NCBI RefSeq assembly: GCF_009765755.1
Contig: NZ_LMUV01000011.1
Coordinates: 1,266,890 to 1,330,889 of the forward strand
Origin: Rhodanobacter sp. L36
GTDB taxonomy: Bacteria > Pseudomonadota > Gammaproteobacteria > Xanthomonadales > Rhodanobacteraceae
Reading direction: 5' to 3'
Length of the DNA stretch: 64,000 nucleotides
Numbering within the stretch: position 1 is the stretch's first letter; every line of letters begins with the position of its first letter. Below the pieces are notes generated by a model. It ran no database searches, was not told the DNA's origin, and was given only the letters and a program-made list of their open reading frames with translations. Position numbers and translations under genes: made by a program. Positions 18,356 to 26,596 of the stretch are shown one piece after another.

Positions 18356-19327
18356 TCACGGTCGAGCCGCGCGCTCCACGTCGATGCCCGCCAATTCATC
18401 ACATCCGATCGCGCGGTTGATGTTTTGCATCGCCTGCGTTGCCGCACCCTTGAGCAGGTTGTCCAGTGTCGCCACGATCACCACGCGCTTGCCATCGGCA
18501 GACAACGCGAAACCGCCGATCTCCGCATGATGACGATGCGCGATGCGGCTGACCCATGGCGCTTCGTCGACCACGACGACAAGCTTCTCGTTGTCGTACG
18601 CGGCACGAAAGCGCGCGATCACTTCATCGCGCGTCATCTTGCGCGAAAGATAAAGATTGGTAGTGACCGAGAGCCCGCGGAAATGCGGCGCCACGTGCGG
18701 CATGAACTCCACCGGTACGCCCAACTGGAACGACGCCTCCTTCTCGTGCATGTGGCCGGTCAGCGCGTATGGCATCAGGTTGTCGCGCAGTTTTTCAGGA
18801 TCGTTTTTGTCCGACGGCGTGGTGCCGGCGCCGGAATAACCGGACACGCCGAAGCACACCGGCGGCGCAGCCAGCAGATCCTTGAGCGGCACGATCGACA
18901 ATTGCATCGCGGTGGCATAGCAACCGGGATTGCTGATGCGCTTCTGGCCGCGCCAGCTGTCGCGTGTCAGCTCCGGCAGGCCGTAGTACCAGCTTCGGTC
19001 GAAACGAAAATCGGCGGACAGATCGACGATCCGCGAATCCACACCGGCCTCATCGAACGCCGCCACATATTCGGCGGCCTTGCCGTTGGGCAGCGCGAGG
19101 ATCACTACGTCGGCGCCGAGTCTCGGAAGTACCGCCTGCGTCGGCGATGTGTAGCGAAGATCGCCGCGGTATTCCGCGACATGCACATCGACTCGCTCGC
19201 CATCCAGCTCGCGCGAAGAAACGAAGCCGAGTTCGAGCCCGGGATGCGCCGCGATCAGTCGGATCAGCTCCGCACCGGTATGACCCCGCGCGCCAACGAT
19301 GCCGATGGTTTTCTTGCCGTTTGCCAC
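18356..19327 (-). CDS. argC: N-acetyl-gamma-glutamyl-phosphate reductase
   Basis: A 323-residue NADP-dependent reductase of arginine synthesis. The dinucleotide motif [13 protein letters not shown] is at the N terminus, the catalytic Cys is in [13 protein letters not shown] near residue 140, and [13 protein letters not shown] matches the family. The GTG at 19327 is preferred: AGGAG lies 7 nt upstream, and the upstream TTG start (19357) would overlap argB without a ribosome-binding site. It reduces N-acetylglutamyl phosphate to the semialdehyde. It belongs to the short ArgC type found with NAGS-K fusions in Xanthomonadales. Confidence 0.95.
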
Positions 19328-19353
19328 TACGTCACTCCTGCAATATCTCTTGT

Positions 19354-20670
19354 TCAATCCACCAGCGTTGGTTGCCGTTCGGCGCAGTGGGCGACGCAGC
19401 GGGCGATGGTTTCGAAATCGTCCATGCCGTACCAGAACACTTTCCAGCGTGGCTGCTTGAAGCAGCCATCGGACTCTGCGTAGTAGAACGGATTGACCTG
19501 ATTGCCGTGGCGCGAGCGCCAGAACAAGCGCGGGTTTTCCTCACGCATCAACAGCCACACCGCGCGTCCCAGGCCTTCGCCCTGTGCGTCGTCAAGCACC
19601 GCGAACTTGTCCAGATAAACCAGGCCATCCACTTCGACGAGGATCATCGCGGCACGATAGTTTTCACTGACATAAATACGGAACGATGTGGTGCGCTCGA
19701 AGTAATCATCCACCAGCGTGCGGCCGAAGCTCGACTCGATCAGGTCGCGCATGCGCGCCAAGTCGACGCCTTTCCACGAATCGTGCCGTTCCACTTTTTC
19801 GCCGCGCCGAACCAGTGTGCCGGAACCCTTGTGGGTGAAAAGTTCCTTGGCCAATTCGGACGGTCGTGTGATCGACACCGACGAGGTCAGCGGCAAGTTC
19901 TGCAGCAGATCGGCGATCTGTTCGATCTTCACGCGCATGCCCGAGTGCAGCCACGGCTGCTGCATCAACTGCTCGTACTCGGTGGAAAGATTGATCGAGT
20001 CGATCAGCTTGCCGTTGCCATCGAGCAGGCCGCCGGTGCCGGTGAGGAAAATGATCTTGTATGGCTGCAGCACGCGCACCAGTTCGTTGGCGGCGAAATC
20101 CGCATTGATGTTGAGGATCTGGCCCTGTTCGGTTTCACCGAGGCTGGCGATTACCGGGATGGAACCGGCGCGCAGGCTGGCGTCGATCGGCGCCAGGTTG
20201 ATGCTCTGCACCTGCCCTACCAGTCCATAGATTTCCGGATCGAGATAGCTGGCGTTAAACACACCGGAGGGCACCGACGTAGCGCGCGTATCCATCGACT
20301 GCAACGCTTCGACCAGCCGCAGGTTCTGTTGCTGGAACACGCGACGCACAATCGCCAGCGCCTGCGGCGAAGTCACCCGCAAACCATTGACGGTTTGTTT
20401 CTCGATGCCTGCAGCAGACAACTCTTCGTCCAGTTGCGGACCCGCACCGTGCAGCACGATCGGCGTGAGTCCCACTTGCTGCAGGAAAGTCAGCGATGAA
20501 GTGAGATCGGGCAGATCGTCGCGCAACACCGCGCCGCCCACTTTGACCACGGCGAAGCGCTTCGCGTCGAGCTGAGAAAAACGCTTCAGGTACTGCTGGA
20601 TTTCCTTCGCGCTGCCCATGCTCGAAAGCAGGCGCACGATGGTTTTGCGGGTGTGCGAGCCACTGTTCAT
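19354..20670 (-). CDS. argB: bifunctional N-acetylglutamate synthase/kinase (NAGS-K)
   Basis: A 438-residue fusion. The N-terminal amino-acid-kinase domain (about residues 15-280: [37 protein letters not shown]) phosphorylates N-acetylglutamate. The C-terminal GNAT domain (about 290-438: [37 protein letters not shown]) makes N-acetylglutamate from glutamate and acetyl-CoA. This architecture is known from Xanthomonas and resembles vertebrate NAGS; arginine acts on it allosterically in characterised relatives. The ATG at 20670 overlaps the argE' stop by 4 bp and is preferred over a longer frame. It provides the first two steps of the operon's pathway. Confidence 0.95.
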
Positions 20671-21767
20671 GCGTTTCCACTTTCGACGATGCGGTAGATG
20701 TTGTCGGCGTACTGCCGCAGTTGATCGAGCGTCACCCACTCGTCGGCGGTGTGTGCCTGCGCAATGTCACCAGGGCCGTAGACGAACGAGGTGTAGCCGC
20801 CGGCGGAGAACAGTGCCGCTTCGGTCCAGAAATCCACCGCGTTGCCGATCGGCAATGCCAGTTCATCGGCGATATCGCGGGCCGCGAGCCGGCGTTCTTC
20901 CGCTCGTGCGGTATCGCCGGCAGGCAGCGAAGCACCGCGAAACGTTTCGCCGAATGCGACCGGTTGCGGCTCGACCAGCGCGCGAAAAATTCCGAGCAGA
21001 CGATCGGGATCCATCGTCGGTAATGGTCGAAAACCAAAGCGAACCTCGGCCGTTGGCGCGATCATGTTGGCCTTGATGCCGCCTTCGATGCGACCGATGT
21101 TGAAACGCAAGCCGGTGAGCCCGCCGAAGCGCTCGTGCGATTGCGCAGCCACGACATCCAGCGCCGCGCCGCCCCAGCGCACCGCCTGATGCAGCGCGCT
21201 GTCGCTGGGTTTCTGTTCACCCGATGCATGACCGGCTTGGCCGGCAAACCGCATCAGCACCGACTGGATGCCACGATGCGCCAGCACTGCCTCGCCCTTC
21301 GTCGGCTCGGCGACGATGATCGCTTCATACGGTTGTGGCTGGCTCAGGAAACCGGCAATGCAGCGTGCGTCGTTGGCTTCCTCGTCGGTCGAGAACAGCA
21401 GTGCCAGATCGCCGTCGCAGGCGTTCGCCACCGCGATCAGCGCCGCAGCCGCGCCCTTGATGTCGCAGGCACCGAGTCCGATCGCGCGATCACCCGTGGT
21501 ACGCAGCACATGCGGATCGGCACTCCAGTGCGGCGAATCCGGCACCGTATCGAGGTGCACGTTGAACAGGTATTTCGGTGAGCCGCGCACCGCGTGCAAG
21601 GTCACCACGCCGGCGCCGTAGTCGGTCACGGTCACGCTGAAGCCTGGCAGCTGCGCGCGCATGTAGTCGAACAAGCCGCCGGTACCGATCGCGCGCGGCG
21701 GATTGCGCGTGTCGAAGGCAACCAGCGCCTTGAGATGGTACAGCGTGGATTCGAGTAGCGCGCTCAT
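20667..21767 (-). CDS. argE': N-acetyl-L-citrulline deacetylase (ArgE-type M20 peptidase)
   Basis: A 366-residue M20-family metallohydrolase: [13 protein letters not shown] (first metal His/Asp), [13 protein letters not shown] (bridging Asp), [11 protein letters not shown] (general base and metal Glu pair) and [14 protein letters not shown]. The neighbouring carbamoyltransferase is of the acetylornithine type, so the expected substrate is N-acetylcitrulline, as in Xanthomonas, not N-acetylornithine; the citrulline released feeds argG. Both ends overlap neighbours by 4 bp (GNAT upstream, argB downstream), placing it in a tightly coupled set. Substrate is inferred from context. Confidence 0.92.
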
Positions 21768-23444: not shown

Positions 23445-23924
23445 TCAAAGAGGTGCAACGACGACTTGCGGCTCGCAGTGCACGGGGAAATTCACGGAGT
23501 TGGCGATGAAGCAGGCGTGGTGCGCGTCTTCATGCAGCGCGATGGCCTTGTCACGGTCGCTCGCCGCGCTCACGGTGACACGTGGCCGCAATACGACCTC
23601 GACGAAGCGTCCGCCATGTTCGTGGAGTTCCATCATCCCTTCGGCGGTATCGGCATACGCCGTAACGACGATGCCCGCGGTCACCGCCACGTGCAGATAC
23701 GAAAGCATGTGGCAGGTCGACAGGGCGGCGACGAGCATGTCTTCGGGATTGTGTTTGCTCGCATCGCCGCGAAAGGCCGCATCGGACGAGCCGGCCAGCG
23801 TTGGCTTGCCGGCGATGCGGATGTCGTGGCTGCGCTCGTAGCCGCGATAGCTCTGTGTGCCGGTTCCGAGATTGCCAGTCCATTCGACGTCGACGCGATA
23901 GCGATGCTCGTGTCCGATGCTCAT
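23445..23924 (-). CDS. OsmC-family protein
   Basis: A 159-residue OsmC/Ohr-type protein with the two Cys positions of thiol peroxidases: [15 protein letters not shown] near residue 76 and [14 protein letters not shown] near 140. An Arg in the usual region completes the site. Such proteins reduce organic hydroperoxides with dihydrolipoamide or a similar thiol donor. The start overlaps the paiB stop by 4 bp and argG follows after 28 bp, so the gene is embedded in the arginine operon without an obvious metabolic link. Confidence 0.86.
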
Positions 23925-24544
23925 GGTTTGCTTTCCTCCTGCAGGGCCATGAGGTCGGCCAGCTCGGCATCGCCATCGCCGTTGCGCTCGCGCAGCCCGG
24001 CGATCACACCGGCGCGATTGCGCGTCGGATGATTCTGGCTCAGCTTGAACTTGCCTTCGACGCGGTCGATGGTGATCTCGATGCCGACGATGGCATGCAG
24101 CATTTTTTCGACGTGGTCTGCCGGTGCGTCGCTGACATGCCAGGGTTGCGGCTGCGTGGCCTCGTGATGGTCGGTCAACTTTTCCAGCAATTGATGAAGC
24201 CAGACCGCATCGCGGACAACGCGCATACGACCATGCACGTGCACGACGGCGTAATTCCACGTGGGAACTTCACGACCAGTCTCGTACTTGGTCGGATACC
24301 AGTTGGGGCTGATATAACCGTCCGGCCCGTGAAAAATCACCAACCCCTCGGCGTCATCCATTTTCGACAATTCGCTGCCGCCCGCGACATGCCCATGCAG
24401 CACATCGCCGACGATTTCAAACGGCAGATGATTGGCGACGATGCCACTGGCGTTATTCACGATCAGCGTGGCGAACGGATACGCACGAATCAATTCGTGC
24501 AGCACATCGTTACGCGATTCGACGAAGGATTTAGGCTGGTACAT
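23921..24544 (-). CDS. FMN-binding PaiB-type protein
   Basis: A 207-residue split-barrel flavin-binding protein of the PaiB family. It has MYQPKSFVE at the start, FATLIVNN, LPFEI, VIFHGPDGYISPNWYP, VPTWNYAVVHVHG and the late SQNHPTRNRAGVI pattern. In Bacillus PaiB is described as a negative regulator of sporulation and protease genes; in proteobacteria members are often annotated as FMN-binding negative regulators, with little experimental support. It lies 9 bp after argF', and co-expression with arginine genes is probable. Function unknown. Confidence 0.87.
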   Translation of the reverse strand: MYQPKSFVESRNDVLHELIRAYPFATLIVNNASGIVANHLPFEIVGDVLHGHVAGGSELSKMDDAEGLVIFHGPDGYISPNWYPTKYETGREVPTWNYAVVHVHGRMRVVRDAVWLHQLLEKLTDHHEATQPQPWHVSDAPADHVEKMLHAIVGIEITIDRVEGKFKLSQNHPTRNRAGVIAGLRERNGDGDAELADLMALQEESKP

Positions 24545-24553
24545 GCCGCAGCC

Positions 24554-25561
24554 TCAGCGTTGCGCGATCAGCGAAGCCATCACCGCTTTCTGCACGTGCA
24601 GGCGGTTCTCGGCTTCATCGATGGCGATGCACGCAGGCGAATCCATTACCGCGTCGGTGGCCTTGATGTTCCGACGCAATGGCAGGCAATGGCTGAACAG
24701 GCCGTGGTCGGTGAGCGCCATCTTCGCTTCGTCCACGATGAAATGCTTGTTGACCTCGCGGATCGGTTTCTCCTGCTCCCATCGACCGAAAAACGGCAAC
24801 GCACCCCAGCTTTTGGCATAGACGACGTGGGCGCCGGTATAGGCCTCCTCGATATCGTGGCTGACCTTCAGCGAGCCGCCATTCTGTTCGGCATTCAGGC
24901 GGCCAAACGCCATGTAACGTTCGTCCAGCACGTAATCGGGCGTGGGACAAAGCAACGTCACGTCCATGCCCATCTTCGTCGCGATCAGCAGCGCGGAGTT
25001 CGCCACGGCGGTGTTCAACGGCTTGGGGTGATAGGTCCAGGTCAGCACATATTTCTTGTTCTGCAGATCGCCGAGATGCTCCCTCAGCGCCAACGCATGC
25101 GCCAGTTCCTGGCAGGGATGGGTGATCGTTTCCATGTTGATCACCGGCACCGTGGCATATTGCGCAAAGGCCTTGATCACGGCGTCCTCGCGATCCACCG
25201 ACCAGTCCTTGAATTTCGGGAATGCGCGCACTGCGATCAGATCGACGTAGCGGGAAAGCACGCGTGCGACCTCCGCAATATGCTCTTCGGTATCGCCATC
25301 CATCACGCTGCCGACTTCGAACTCGATCGGCCACGCATCCTTGCCGGGCGACAGCACGATCGCGTGCGCACCCAGATGGAACGCGCCCAGCTCGAAGCTG
25401 GTGCGCGTGCGCATCGAAGGATTGAAGAACAACAACGCGATCGACTTGCCGGCAAGCTGCTGGCCGCGCGGCGAACGCTTGAACTGCGCAGCCTGCGACA
25501 ACAACGCATCGATCTCGGCGCGGCTGTAATCCTGCGTGGTGATGAAATGGCGAATGGTCAT
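24554..25561 (-). CDS. argF': N-acetyl-L-ornithine carbamoyltransferase (AOTC)
   Basis: A 335-residue transcarbamylase. The carbamoyl-phosphate loop is SMRTRTS at 49-55 and HPCQELAHAL binds the second substrate. The sequence shows AOTC features known from Xanthomonas campestris: Trp77 in GKDAWPIEF, Glu92 in MDGDTEEHI (Pro at the matching position marks the succinylornithine enzymes), LTWTYHPKPLNTAVANS, and the late Lys in LPLRRNIKATDA. It carbamoylates N-acetylornithine to N-acetylcitrulline. The ATG at 25561 is used; the first gene of the operon, it is preceded by a terminator and an arginine-rich leader ORF, indicating attenuation. Confidence 0.96.
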   Translation of the reverse strand: MTIRHFITTQDYSRAEIDALLSQAAQFKRSPRGQQLAGKSIALLFFNPSMRTRTSFELGAFHLGAHAIVLSPGKDAWPIEFEVGSVMDGDTEEHIAEVARVLSRYVDLIAVRAFPKFKDWSVDREDAVIKAFAQYATVPVINMETITHPCQELAHALALREHLGDLQNKKYVLTWTYHPKPLNTAVANSALLIATKMGMDVTLLCPTPDYVLDERYMAFGRLNAEQNGGSLKVSHDIEEAYTGAHVVYAKSWGALPFFGRWEQEKPIREVNKHFIVDEAKMALTDHGLFSHCLPLRRNIKATDAVMDSPACIAIDEAENRLHVQKAVMASLIAQR

Positions 25562-25579: not shown

Positions 25580-25610
25580 AAACAAAAAACCCGGCGTGCG
25601 AGCCGGGTTT
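25580..25610 (-). terminator. intrinsic terminator in the argF' leader (attenuator)
   Basis: In the minus-strand transcript the stem AAACCCGGC (25610-25602) / GCCGGGTTT (25595-25587), with a 6-nt loop, is followed by a T-rich run (TTTGTTTTTG). The hairpin ends about 20 nt before the argF' start, so it is not the end of the upstream gene but a leader terminator in front of argF'. Its 5' arm (ACCCGGC, 25608-25602) is complementary to GCCGGGT at 25651-25645, at the end of the leader ORF. Confidence 0.8.
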
Positions 25611-25642
25611 ATCGTCGAAACACATGAAACGCGTACGACAGC

Positions 25643-25747
25643 CTACCCGGCCGAATGTCCGTTCATCGGTCGGCGAGCACGCGATGTCATGCCGGCGGCC
25701 ATGCGGGCGCTGGTGAGAACAATGGCGGTATAGACGGCTGTTGACAT
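25643..25747 (-). CDS. putative arginine leader peptide of the argF' operon
   Basis: A 34-codon ORF with Arg at codons 15, 23, 25 and 26; codons 23-26 read Arg-Ala-Arg-Arg. It ends with Ser-Ala-Gly and TAG at 25645-25643, 33 nt before the terminator stem. The last codons contain GCCGGGT, complementary to the terminator's 5' arm. CGACCGA over codons 26-28 (25672-25666) can pair with TCGGCCG (25654-25648), with one mismatch, giving the alternative 1:2 hairpin. A ribosome stalled at the Arg codons would cover arm 1 and free arm 2 to disrupt the terminator. The ribosome-binding site is weak (GGAA). A longer frame starting at 25828 (61 codons) contains the same Arg run. Confidence 0.6.
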   Translation of the reverse strand: MSTAVYTAIVLTSARMAAGMTSRARRPMNGHSAG

Positions 25748-25825
25748 GAGAGTTCCGAACGGCGAGCGCACATGATGGCGAACATTGCGCTGCCGCGCAA
25801 CAAAAAGTATCGGGAGCGGAAACGA

Positions 25826-25875: not shown

Positions 25876-26418
25876 TCAGTCTGCAGGTTCCACGCTCACC
25901 CGTACGCGCAGGCGTTCGCCCGGGTCATAGCTTAGGCGGGACATGTAGACCTCGCCGCGATAGCGGTACTCGACGTCGTAGCCGACGATCCGGCGCTGCT
26001 CGCTGACCGACCTCACTTCACGACATTGAGTCTGCGTGGACTGGTAATCGCCGCCCTGATCCGACACGTGGTTGCCGACGGCTCCGCCGGCCACCGCACC
26101 GGCGACGGTGGCAGCAGTGCGACCGTCTCCCTTGCCAACCGTATGGCCCAGCACGCCTCCGATCACCGCGCCCAACACCGTGCCCGCCGCAGTATTGCCA
26201 CTGTCGTGCTGCACGACCGGCTGGTCGTAGCATTCCTGCTGCGGAACCTCGCTGCGCGTGACGCCCTGCACCGGATCCGCGCGCAGCACATCAGCCCAAC
26301 CATAGTGGGCATTGTCGTCATTACCGGGAGGACCCGGCGGGCCTTGACGCGCATCCTGTGCACTCGCACTGAAAGCCACGATGCTCAGCAGCAGCGTGGA
26401 GAAAAATAATCTGGTCAT
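25876..26418 (-). CDS. glycine-zipper 2TM-domain surface-antigen-like protein
   Basis: A 180-residue protein with a signal peptide (MTRLFFSTLLLSIVAFSASA) and a proline/glycine-rich early segment (QGPPGPPGNDD). A glycine-zipper block follows at about 85-125 (AAGTVLGAVIGGVLGHTVG, VAGAVAGGAVGNHV), as in the 17-kDa surface antigen/glycine-zipper 2TM family. A beta-type C-terminal domain (YDVEYRYRGEVYMSRLSYDPGERLRV) completes it. These envelope proteins insert into or line the outer membrane; function is poorly known. No lipobox Cys is seen. The ATG at 26418 gives a proper signal peptide. Confidence 0.8.
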   Translation of the reverse strand: MTRLFFSTLLLSIVAFSASAQDARQGPPGPPGNDDNAHYGWADVLRADPVQGVTRSEVPQQECYDQPVVQHDSGNTAAGTVLGAVIGGVLGHTVGKGDGRTAATVAGAVAGGAVGNHVSDQGGDYQSTQTQCREVRSVSEQRRIVGYDVEYRYRGEVYMSRLSYDPGERLRVRVSVEPAD

Positions 26419-26596
26419 GGCGACCTCCGAATCTGTACATCGATGCGCTCGCGCGCGAACTAGAGACATTGCATCAAGTTCACGCTGAATCCACGCTTAG
26501 AATGGCCGCAAGATCACTGCGCCGCTTACACCTTGTTAAGATGCCGGGCTCGTCGCGCCCGCCATGACGACTCTTTCGCCTGCGGATTTCCACCCG

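What the first reader, a model, noticed from the sequence alone, without database searches (positions are those of the whole stretch)
25580..25747. Ribosome-mediated arginine attenuator ahead of the argF' operon
Between the glycine-zipper gene and argF' the minus strand carries, in order: a 34-codon ORF with Arg-Ala-Arg-Arg near its end (25681-25670), GCCGGGT in its last codons (25651-25645), and an intrinsic terminator (25610-25587 plus T-run) just before argF'. GCCGGGT is perfectly complementary to the terminator 5' arm. The Arg codons themselves overlap a segment (CGACCGA) able to sequester TCGGCCG instead, so three mutually exclusive arms are in the order needed for classical attenuation: arginine starvation stalls the ribosome, frees arm 2 and prevents termination. 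Attenuation is well known for his, trp, thr, ilv, leu and phe operons of proteobacteria; I am not aware of a described arginine leader of this type for the acetylornithine pathway of Xanthomonadales.
Basis: partly seen in the sequence, partly recalled or inferred. Interest (0 to 1): 0.85.

Follow-up and report, generated by a model that had tools for sequence, protein, structure and literature searches.

The report
Arginine attenuator before argF' operon
A short arginine-rich leader peptide gene in front of the arginine-synthesis genes of Xanthomonas-like bacteria very probably lets the ribosome sense arginine and switch transcription on or off, and a database 'small RNA' called Xoo5 appears to be a piece of this switch.

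Summary
A 34-codon leader ORF (25747-25643, minus strand) ends in Arg-Ala-Arg-Arg-Pro plus seven residues; its last codons hold a 7-nt arm complementary to the 5' arm of an intrinsic terminator ahead of argF'. In 143 argF'-linked relatives the Arg codons are kept; 138 have a terminator by strict criteria and 129 of these hold arm 2 exactly 30 nt after the first Arg codon. In sister families argF' has divergent leaders with longer Arg runs: 30 of 31 regions with a terminator, 4.2 expected from shuffles. No ArgR domain was found in sampled genomes of the leader families. Best reading: ribosome-mediated arginine attenuation. Two additions: (1) Rfam RF02242 'Xoo5 sRNA' is this leader RNA; (2) the peptide core A-R-M-A-x-G-M-T-S-R-A-R-R-P is conserved as amino acids while third codon positions drift (30/16/173 changes at positions 1/2/3), which codon-run attenuation does not require and which hints at a nascent-peptide role. 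Nothing was measured: arginine response, stalling and termination are inferred.

The parts
25795..25800 (-). -35-like TTGCGC (with CATCAT 25777-25772 as -10-like)
   Evidence: a TTGC lies 52-56 nt before the leader start in 76 of 81 sequences of the window's set; promoter not tested
25753..25756 (-). GGAA, Shine-Dalgarno-like, just before the leader ATG
   Evidence: GGA 4-15 nt before the start in 64 of 81 of the window's set, 14 of 60 in the other set
25643..25747 (-). leader ORF, 34 codons plus stop
   Evidence: 82-86% of changes at third codon positions in the window's set outside the tail
25667..25708 (-). conserved peptide core A-R-M-A-A-G-M-T-S-R-A-R-R-P
   Evidence: codon table of 143 leaders; 30/16/173 changes at codon positions 1/2/3
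25670..25681 (-). regulatory codons CGT GCT CGC CGA (Arg-Ala-Arg-Arg)
   Evidence: Arg in 143 of 143 at all three positions; last one CGA in 142 of 143, against 10 of 188 Arg codons in eight window genes
25641..25682 (-). protector hairpin (arm 1 with the Arg codons pairs with arm 2)
   Evidence: main helix 96.2% of cells paired in 77 rows (helix 4)
25645..25651 (-). arm 2, GCCGGGT, overlaps the stop codon
   Evidence: 7 of 7 complementary to arm 3 and 30 nt after the first Arg codon in 129 of 138
25602..25651 (-). antiterminator hairpin (arm 2 with arm 3, inner GUCG/CGAC hairpin)
   Evidence: -23.4 kcal/mol, z -2.6; 96.3% of cells paired
25602..25608 (-). arm 3, ACCCGGC
25584..25610 (-). intrinsic terminator with T-run
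   Evidence: z -4.2; strict finder 138 of 143 leaders
24557..25561 (-). argF', N-acetylornithine carbamoyltransferase
   Evidence: Pfam OTCace_N/OTCace; its orthologue in L086 (76-80% class identity to argF') matches a solved N-acetylornithine carbamoyltransferase over all 336 residues, 771 bits
22211..23458 (-). argG (argininosuccinate synthase), probably same operon
   Evidence: Pfam; operon not tested
20667..21767 (-). M20-family deacylase, argE-like
   Evidence: Pfam
19354..20679 (-). amino acid kinase fused to NAT domain (argB/argA type)
   Evidence: Pfam
18356..19357 (-). argC-like semialdehyde dehydrogenase
   Evidence: Pfam

Best explanation
A ribosome-mediated transcription attenuator that answers to arginine and controls the argF' arginine operon. 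With enough Arg-tRNA the ribosome passes CGT-GCT-CGC-CGA and reaches the stop codon, which lies at arm 2; arm 2 is covered, arm 3 pairs with arm 4 and RNA polymerase terminates before argF'. When Arg-tRNA is short the ribosome halts on the Arg codons; its downstream edge then lies just short of arm 2, arm 2 pairs with arm 3 (with the inner hairpin) and transcription goes on. If the ORF is not translated, arm 1 pairs with arm 2 and the terminator forms. Shown from sequence: ORF under coding selection, conserved Arg codons, three mutually exclusive arms, a nearly fixed distance from Arg codons to arm 2, terminator, gene linkage. Inferred: that arginine is the signal, that the ribosome stalls, that termination occurs, and that the conserved peptide core helps the stall.
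For: 143 of 143 leaders keep Arg at the three positions. Arm 2 is 7 of 7 complementary to arm 3 and sits 30 nt after the first Arg codon in 129 of 138. Arms change together between families: of 138, 83 GCCGGGT/ACCCGGC, 31 GCTGGGT/ACCCAGC, 9 GCTGGGT/GCCCAGC; GCCAGGT/ACCTGGT in two f9 loci. Divergent leaders of families f5-f11 carry Arg clusters in 30 of the 31 regions with a terminator, 4.2 expected. ArgR_C not found in the own genome; among 200 genomes of the order 8 have it, all in f12, a family without the core pattern. The 38 over-cut-off RF02242 loci that I fetched, from 56 genomes over cut-off, all lie just before argF'.
Against: No expression data for arginine. Published Xoo5 sizes (124 nt by RACE and clone, about 130 and 100 nt on Northern blots; PMC3039613 passages) are shorter than the 157 nt expected for an RNA ending at the terminator, so processing must be assumed. 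The Arg run is short, and the amino-acid conservation around it is not needed by the codon model. Within a set arms 2 and 3 hardly vary, and shuffles do not show covariation there, so covariation rests on between-family switches; three leaders pair arm 2 and 3 through G-U and one (L137) has a mismatch. In three leaders arm 2 moves 3 nt together with the stop codon (L117, L119, L143). The window's protector is only weakly better than shuffles. Seven of 38 argF' upstream regions from f5-f11 lack a terminator by my finder and one with a terminator (L250) has no qualifying ORF.
Confidence: 0.9

Rival explanations
1. Nascent-peptide arrest: the conserved core A-R-M-A-x-G-M-T-S-R-A-R-R-P interacts with the exit tunnel and stalls the ribosome near Arg-Arg-Pro, with arginine or a pathway intermediate such as N-acetylornithine as effector, rather than plain lack of Arg-tRNA. 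Same RNA switch, different or additional sensor.
For: Core changes 30/16/173 at codon positions 1/2/3, the five codons after it 145/93/84, argF' itself 1353/831/5273. Codons A-x-G-M-T-S 12/1/102; selection on amino acids is not seen in the tail of either set. The codons before TCG-CGT lie outside the protector hairpin drawn for the window (25682-25641).
Against: Sister families have Arg runs without this core, which fits codon sensing. The residue after RARR is Pro in 138 of 143 but Leu in four and Cys in one, and Asn, Met, Thr or Arg in further loci, so Pro is not essential. No comparison with known arrest peptides was run.
Confidence: 0.3
2. A trans-acting small RNA (as Xoo5 is filed in Rfam and in the 2011 paper), with the ORF incidental.
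For: Northern-verified RNA in Xanthomonas oryzae (PMC3039613 passages); Rfam type 'Gene; sRNA'.
Against: Coding periodicity of substitutions, linkage to argF' in the 38 over-cut-off loci fetched, antiterminator/terminator anatomy, Arg runs in sister families. A secondary trans role of the terminated RNA is not excluded.
Confidence: 0.04
3. The peptide is a functional small protein acting in trans, and the RNA arms are a separate terminator.
For: Amino-acid-level selection.
Against: Nearly fixed 30-nt distance from Arg codons to arm 2; free tail in both sets and free N-terminus outside the window's set; different peptides before argF' in sister families.
Confidence: 0.05

Closest known systems
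Ribosome-mediated attenuators of his, trp, leu, thr, phe operons (general knowledge; features tested below)
   Same: leader ORF with codons of the pathway's product, protector / antiterminator / intrinsic terminator, biosynthetic operon downstream
   Different: arginine; only RARR in the main form; peptide core conserved as amino acids; in Xoo5-type loci the RNA would begin 2 nt before the start codon if the published 5' end holds
Rfam RF02242 Xoo5, 'Xanthomonadaceae sRNA'
   Same: same RNA: in L086 the model match begins at CTATG of the leader start and runs past its stop
   Different: filed as sRNA; model ends before the terminator; the window scores 31.4 bits, below the 50-bit cut-off
orf34/SpeFL leader of speF in Salmonella (PMC6386406; abstract and passages seen; the name SpeFL is recalled)
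   Same: 34-codon leader with two consecutive Arg codons; pausing at low arginine changes RNA folding
   Different: controls ornithine decarboxylase through Rho, RNase G and translation, not an intrinsic terminator before arginine-synthesis genes
carA leader of Pseudomonas (PMC4997734; passages seen)
   Same: leader peptide and proposed attenuation before a gene shared by arginine and pyrimidine synthesis
   Different: proposed pyrimidine control; other gene and lineage
Fungal arginine attenuator peptide (recalled)
   Same: arginine-linked leader peptide with conserved residues
   Different: eukaryotic, acts on translation in response to free arginine

Membership tests
Ribosome-mediated transcription attenuator | short translated leader ORF upstream of a biosynthetic operon | tested here: met
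   start codon 80 of 81 in the window's set; coding periodicity; argF' downstream. Translation itself not measured
Ribosome-mediated transcription attenuator | codons for the pathway's end product at the control position | tested here: met
   143 of 143; Arg clusters in 30 of 31 sister-family regions with a terminator, 4.2 expected
Ribosome-mediated transcription attenuator | intrinsic terminator before the first structural gene | tested here: met
   138 of 143 by strict finder; the other five show a hairpin by eye in the sequence
Ribosome-mediated transcription attenuator | antiterminator and protector mutually exclusive with the terminator | tested here: met
   (helix 4); helices nearly invariant within sets, so little covariation
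Ribosome-mediated transcription attenuator | stall position leaves arm 2 free, stop codon position covers it | tested here: met
   geometry only: arm 2 at +30 in 129 of 138; footprint length recalled
Ribosome-mediated transcription attenuator | expression rises on starvation for that amino acid | not testable with these tools
   no expression data
Rfam RF02242 Xoo5 | covariance-model score at or above 50 bits | tested here: not met
   window 31.4 bits; 56 of 299 genomes of the order pass, none of them of the window's genus
Rfam RF02242 Xoo5 | same locus and core sequence (homology) | tested here: met
   RARR core and argF' downstream in the 38 over-cut-off loci fetched, of 56
Metabolite-sensing arrest peptide (TnaC/SpeFL type) | peptide sequence, not only codons, under selection | tested here: met
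Metabolite-sensing arrest peptide (TnaC/SpeFL type) | effector-dependent stall on the ribosome | not testable with these tools
   needs toeprinting or structure

The most novel reading that the evidence does not exclude
In the window's family and the Xanthomonas family the leader has evolved from an Arg-codon run into a nascent-chain sensor: the core ARMAxGMTSRARRP stalls the ribosome itself, tuned by arginine or N-acetylornithine, so that codon sensing and peptide sensing are stacked in one attenuator, and sister families preserve the simpler codon-run stage.
Probability: 0.3. Interest if true: 0.87.

Novelty: new variant of a known kind. Interest (0 to 1): 0.72.

Why it matters
It offers a control for arginine synthesis in a large group of bacteria in which no ArgR domain was found, gives a cis function to an RNA filed as a small RNA, and provides a lineage in which codon-run leaders and a leader with a conserved peptide can be compared at one gene. 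The last makes the question of how nascent-peptide sensing arises from codon sensing testable. No arginine attenuator of argF' turned up in the listings (at most 20 papers shown per search) nor in the passages of PMC2965389, a survey of premature terminators whose main text holds neither 'arginine' nor 'argF' (its supplements were not searched). The library holds open-licence papers only, so older subscription papers on attenuator prediction could contain it.

Tried and rejected
Rfam at curated cut-offs gave nothing in the window; the Xoo5 match appeared only at a relaxed threshold. Relaxed matches to such families are unreliable alone: Thr_leader 'hits' 75 of 101 genomes of the order, none over its cut-off, and the one that I inspected (L165) shows by eye a terminator-like hairpin and no Thr-rich leader. 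The Xoo5 identity therefore rests on the shared core and the argF' linkage. Eight of the 70 RF02242 loci L086-L155 (L120, L122, L133, L141, L142, L144, L148, L150) have no argF'; all are below cut-off and were dropped before the counts on 143 leaders.

A second copy of the leader in the own genome: none (the other three matches have E above 1). Hoped-for control attenuators (Thr and His leaders; His 4 of 101, none over cut-off) gave no usable set, so the yardsticks for peptide conservation are only argF' itself and the leader's own tail.

The idea that ArgR loss alone marks the leader was rejected: no ArgR_C hit was seen in families f5-f11 either; there most examined argF' genes have divergent Arg leaders and seven of 38 have no terminator found. 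The second pattern match in G224 is out of context.

In the tree test two of the 143 leaders were left out: L140 (frame trouble in the argF' stretch) and L146 (gene cut by the contig end). In one search, L247 was left out (upstream too short). Searches found 53 places; I examined 39 of them, the loci handed out for f5-f11; not examined: the 13 places without a locus, and G019 (L227, weak match).

One search has a typing error of mine: its terminator helix is one column off, so its helix 5 and its whole-structure figures are not used; one search repeats the terminator correctly. Family counts were made by hand from its listing.

Full report
WHAT IS THERE. The minus strand between the glycine-zipper gene (25876-26469) and argF' (24557-25561) carries a 34-codon ORF, 25747-25643, an arm GCCGGGT at 25651-25645 that overlaps the stop codon, and an intrinsic terminator 25610-25584. 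The terminator folds at -15.2 kcal/mol (z -4.2), the hairpin of arm 2 with the terminator's 5' arm at -23.4 (z -2.6, 1 of 200 shuffles as good) and the protector region at -30.1 (z -1.5, 17 of 200). The antiterminator is more than the 7-bp helix: between the arms sits a second hairpin, UGUCG..CGACG, inside it.

THE GENOME. The window lies in a genome of 3.98 Mb. The closest named argF' relatives are from Rhodanobacter, Dyella, Frateuria and Luteibacter, besides uncultured assemblies, so the window's family (f1 below) is taken as Rhodanobacteraceae; f2 is taken as Xanthomonadaceae because the Rfam family of that name scores highest there. The other families are unnamed. No match to the ArgR C-terminal domain was found in the own genome (the same search rings in 8 of 14 control genomes). 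The genes after argF' include argG, an M20 deacylase, a kinase/NAT fusion and an argC-like dehydrogenase.

CONSERVATION. In all 143 the leader reads Arg-Ala-Arg-Arg. A strict terminator finder succeeds in 138 of 143; the five others show a hairpin by eye. The degenerate core pattern occurs in 258 of 398 genomes of the order, its reversed control in one. By my count of that listing: 123 of 125 in f1, 127 of 128 in f2, 3 of 3 in f3, 5 of 10 in f4, 0 of 132 in f5-f12. The misses G031 and G396 and G292 (L092) have the leader with small changes, and so do two of the five f4 misses, G003 and G015. In the class, 5 of 369 genomes match; these are the five members of the order in that sample.

ARMS. 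Arm 2 lies 30 nt after the first Arg codon, 7 of 7 complementary to arm 3 (G-U counted), in 129 of 138. Of the nine others, three have a stop codon 9 nt earlier while arm 2 stays at 29-30 (L116 7/7, L118 and L131 6/7), and three have arm 2 and stop moved together by 3 nt (L117, L119, L143); L128, L137 and L147 pair 6 of 7. A ribosome halted on the Arg codons would leave arm 2 just free (footprint length recalled; inference). Within the window's set arm2:arm3 pairs in 100% of cells and the inner stem in 98.7%; in the second set 99.4%, against 28-54% for slid partners. Covariation of this helix within sets is near nil because it hardly varies; between families arms 2, 3 and 4 switch together (of 138: 83 GCCGGGT/ACCCGGC, 31 GCTGGGT/ACCCAGC, 9 GCTGGGT/GCCCAGC; three pair through G-U and one, L137, has a mismatch). 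In the second set protector and terminator together have 20 cells with changes on both sides against 5.8 in shuffles (0 of 500), 18 of the 20 from the terminator.

ARGININE AS THE SIGNAL. The strongest independent evidence is from families f5-f11, which lack the core pattern. Of 53 argF'-like places found in two searches of 72 chosen genomes (the first included f1, f2, f4 and f12 genomes besides) I examined 39 from f5-f11, those for which a locus was handed out. Of these 38 had enough upstream sequence; 31 have a terminator there; 30 of the 31 have a short ORF ending 8-60 nt before it with at least three Arg in six codons, against 4.2 expected from dinucleotide shuffles. The shuffles do not keep relatedness, and many of the 39 are from one family, f8. 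Examples: NPRRRRVLQSTAG, AALRRRRRLSQRRAG, GRRARRTRRPLLAG, SVVRRRPRPRIYAG. Several keep Arg-Arg-Pro, so they are probably homologous to the window's leader; that the long run is the older state is a guess. Two f9 loci have a third arm set, GCCAGGT/ACCTGGT. ArgR_C occurs in 8 of 200 genomes of the order, all in f12; in G011, G021, G030 and G066 it lies about 1.4 kb from the argF'-like gene.

THE PEPTIDE. On the argF' tree (141 of the 143 leaders) the 14 core codons changed 30, 16 and 173 times at positions 1, 2, 3; the five codons after Pro 145, 93, 84; argF' itself (300 codons) 1353, 831, 5273. In the window's set the nine codons before the core show it too (4/12/74); in the other set they do not (98/97/82), while the core does (24/10/98). 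So the ORF is very probably translated and the peptide from Ala-9 to Pro+4 is selected as protein. Plain attenuation needs only the Arg codons. The conserved stretch ends about where the ribosome should halt, which suggests a nascent-chain contribution; this is inference. CGA as the last Arg codon (142 of 143) is rare in eight window genes (10 of 188) and may slow decoding, or may be held by pairing in the protector.

XOO5. RF02242 'Xanthomonadaceae sRNA Xoo5' matches 25635-25737 below cut-off (31.4 against 50 bits). Of 56 genomes over cut-off in the order I fetched 38 loci; each has argF' downstream, and the protein of the top one, L086, matches a solved N-acetylornithine carbamoyltransferase over all 336 residues (771 bits). 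The 2011 paper (PMC3039613, passages seen) found Xoo5 by cloning, RACE and Northern blot: 124 nt, bands near 130 and 100 nt, the longer one only in early growth; its main text holds no 'arginine', 'argF' or 'terminator'. That its flanking genes PXO_00354/PXO_00353 include argF' is inferred from these loci; I did not see that genome. In L086 the match starts CTATG, so the RNA would begin two bases before the leader start codon, a leaderless leader, if the Rfam model starts at the RACE end. In the window's set a TTGC lies 52-56 nt before the start in 76 of 81, and GGA stands before 64 of 81 starts; among the others a TTGC lies 36-39 nt before the start that my script chose in 35 of 62. The expected RNA up to the terminator is 157 nt, longer than reported; processing or a mis-mapped 3' end must be assumed.

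VERDICT. It is a known kind of device with an effector amino acid that my searches did not find described for a biosynthetic operon, plus a peptide feature that is not part of the textbook scheme.

Noticed in passing
L002, L004, L007, L035, L052 between terminator and argF': GC-rich palindromic repeats of the type GCGGATCC..CCGGCCATCCATGGCCGGAC lie between the terminator and argF' in several Rhodanobacter relatives; stop-to-argF' distance 137-210 nt in four of them.
   Followed up: no
L003, L010, L017, L018, L072 upstream of argF': A second hairpin-plus-T stretch resembling a duplicated terminator follows the first (by eye).
   Followed up: no
L022:143-175: The contig of Dyella sp. ASV24 carries what looks like sequencing-adapter sequence fused to the leader, replacing its start codon (adapter recognised from memory).
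   Followed up: partly
L145, L146 (family f4): Leaders end RARRPG and seem to have a redesigned arm: GGGTTTCG could pair with CGAAGCCC at the terminator (read by eye).
   Followed up: partly
G011, G021, G030, G066 (family f12): A distant argF'-like gene (40-42% identity) lies about 1.4 kb from an ArgR domain gene, a possible repressor-controlled alternative in the same order.
   Followed up: no
window 23448-24544: An FMN-binding (PF04299) and an OsmC-like gene lie between argF' and argG on the same strand.
   Followed up: no
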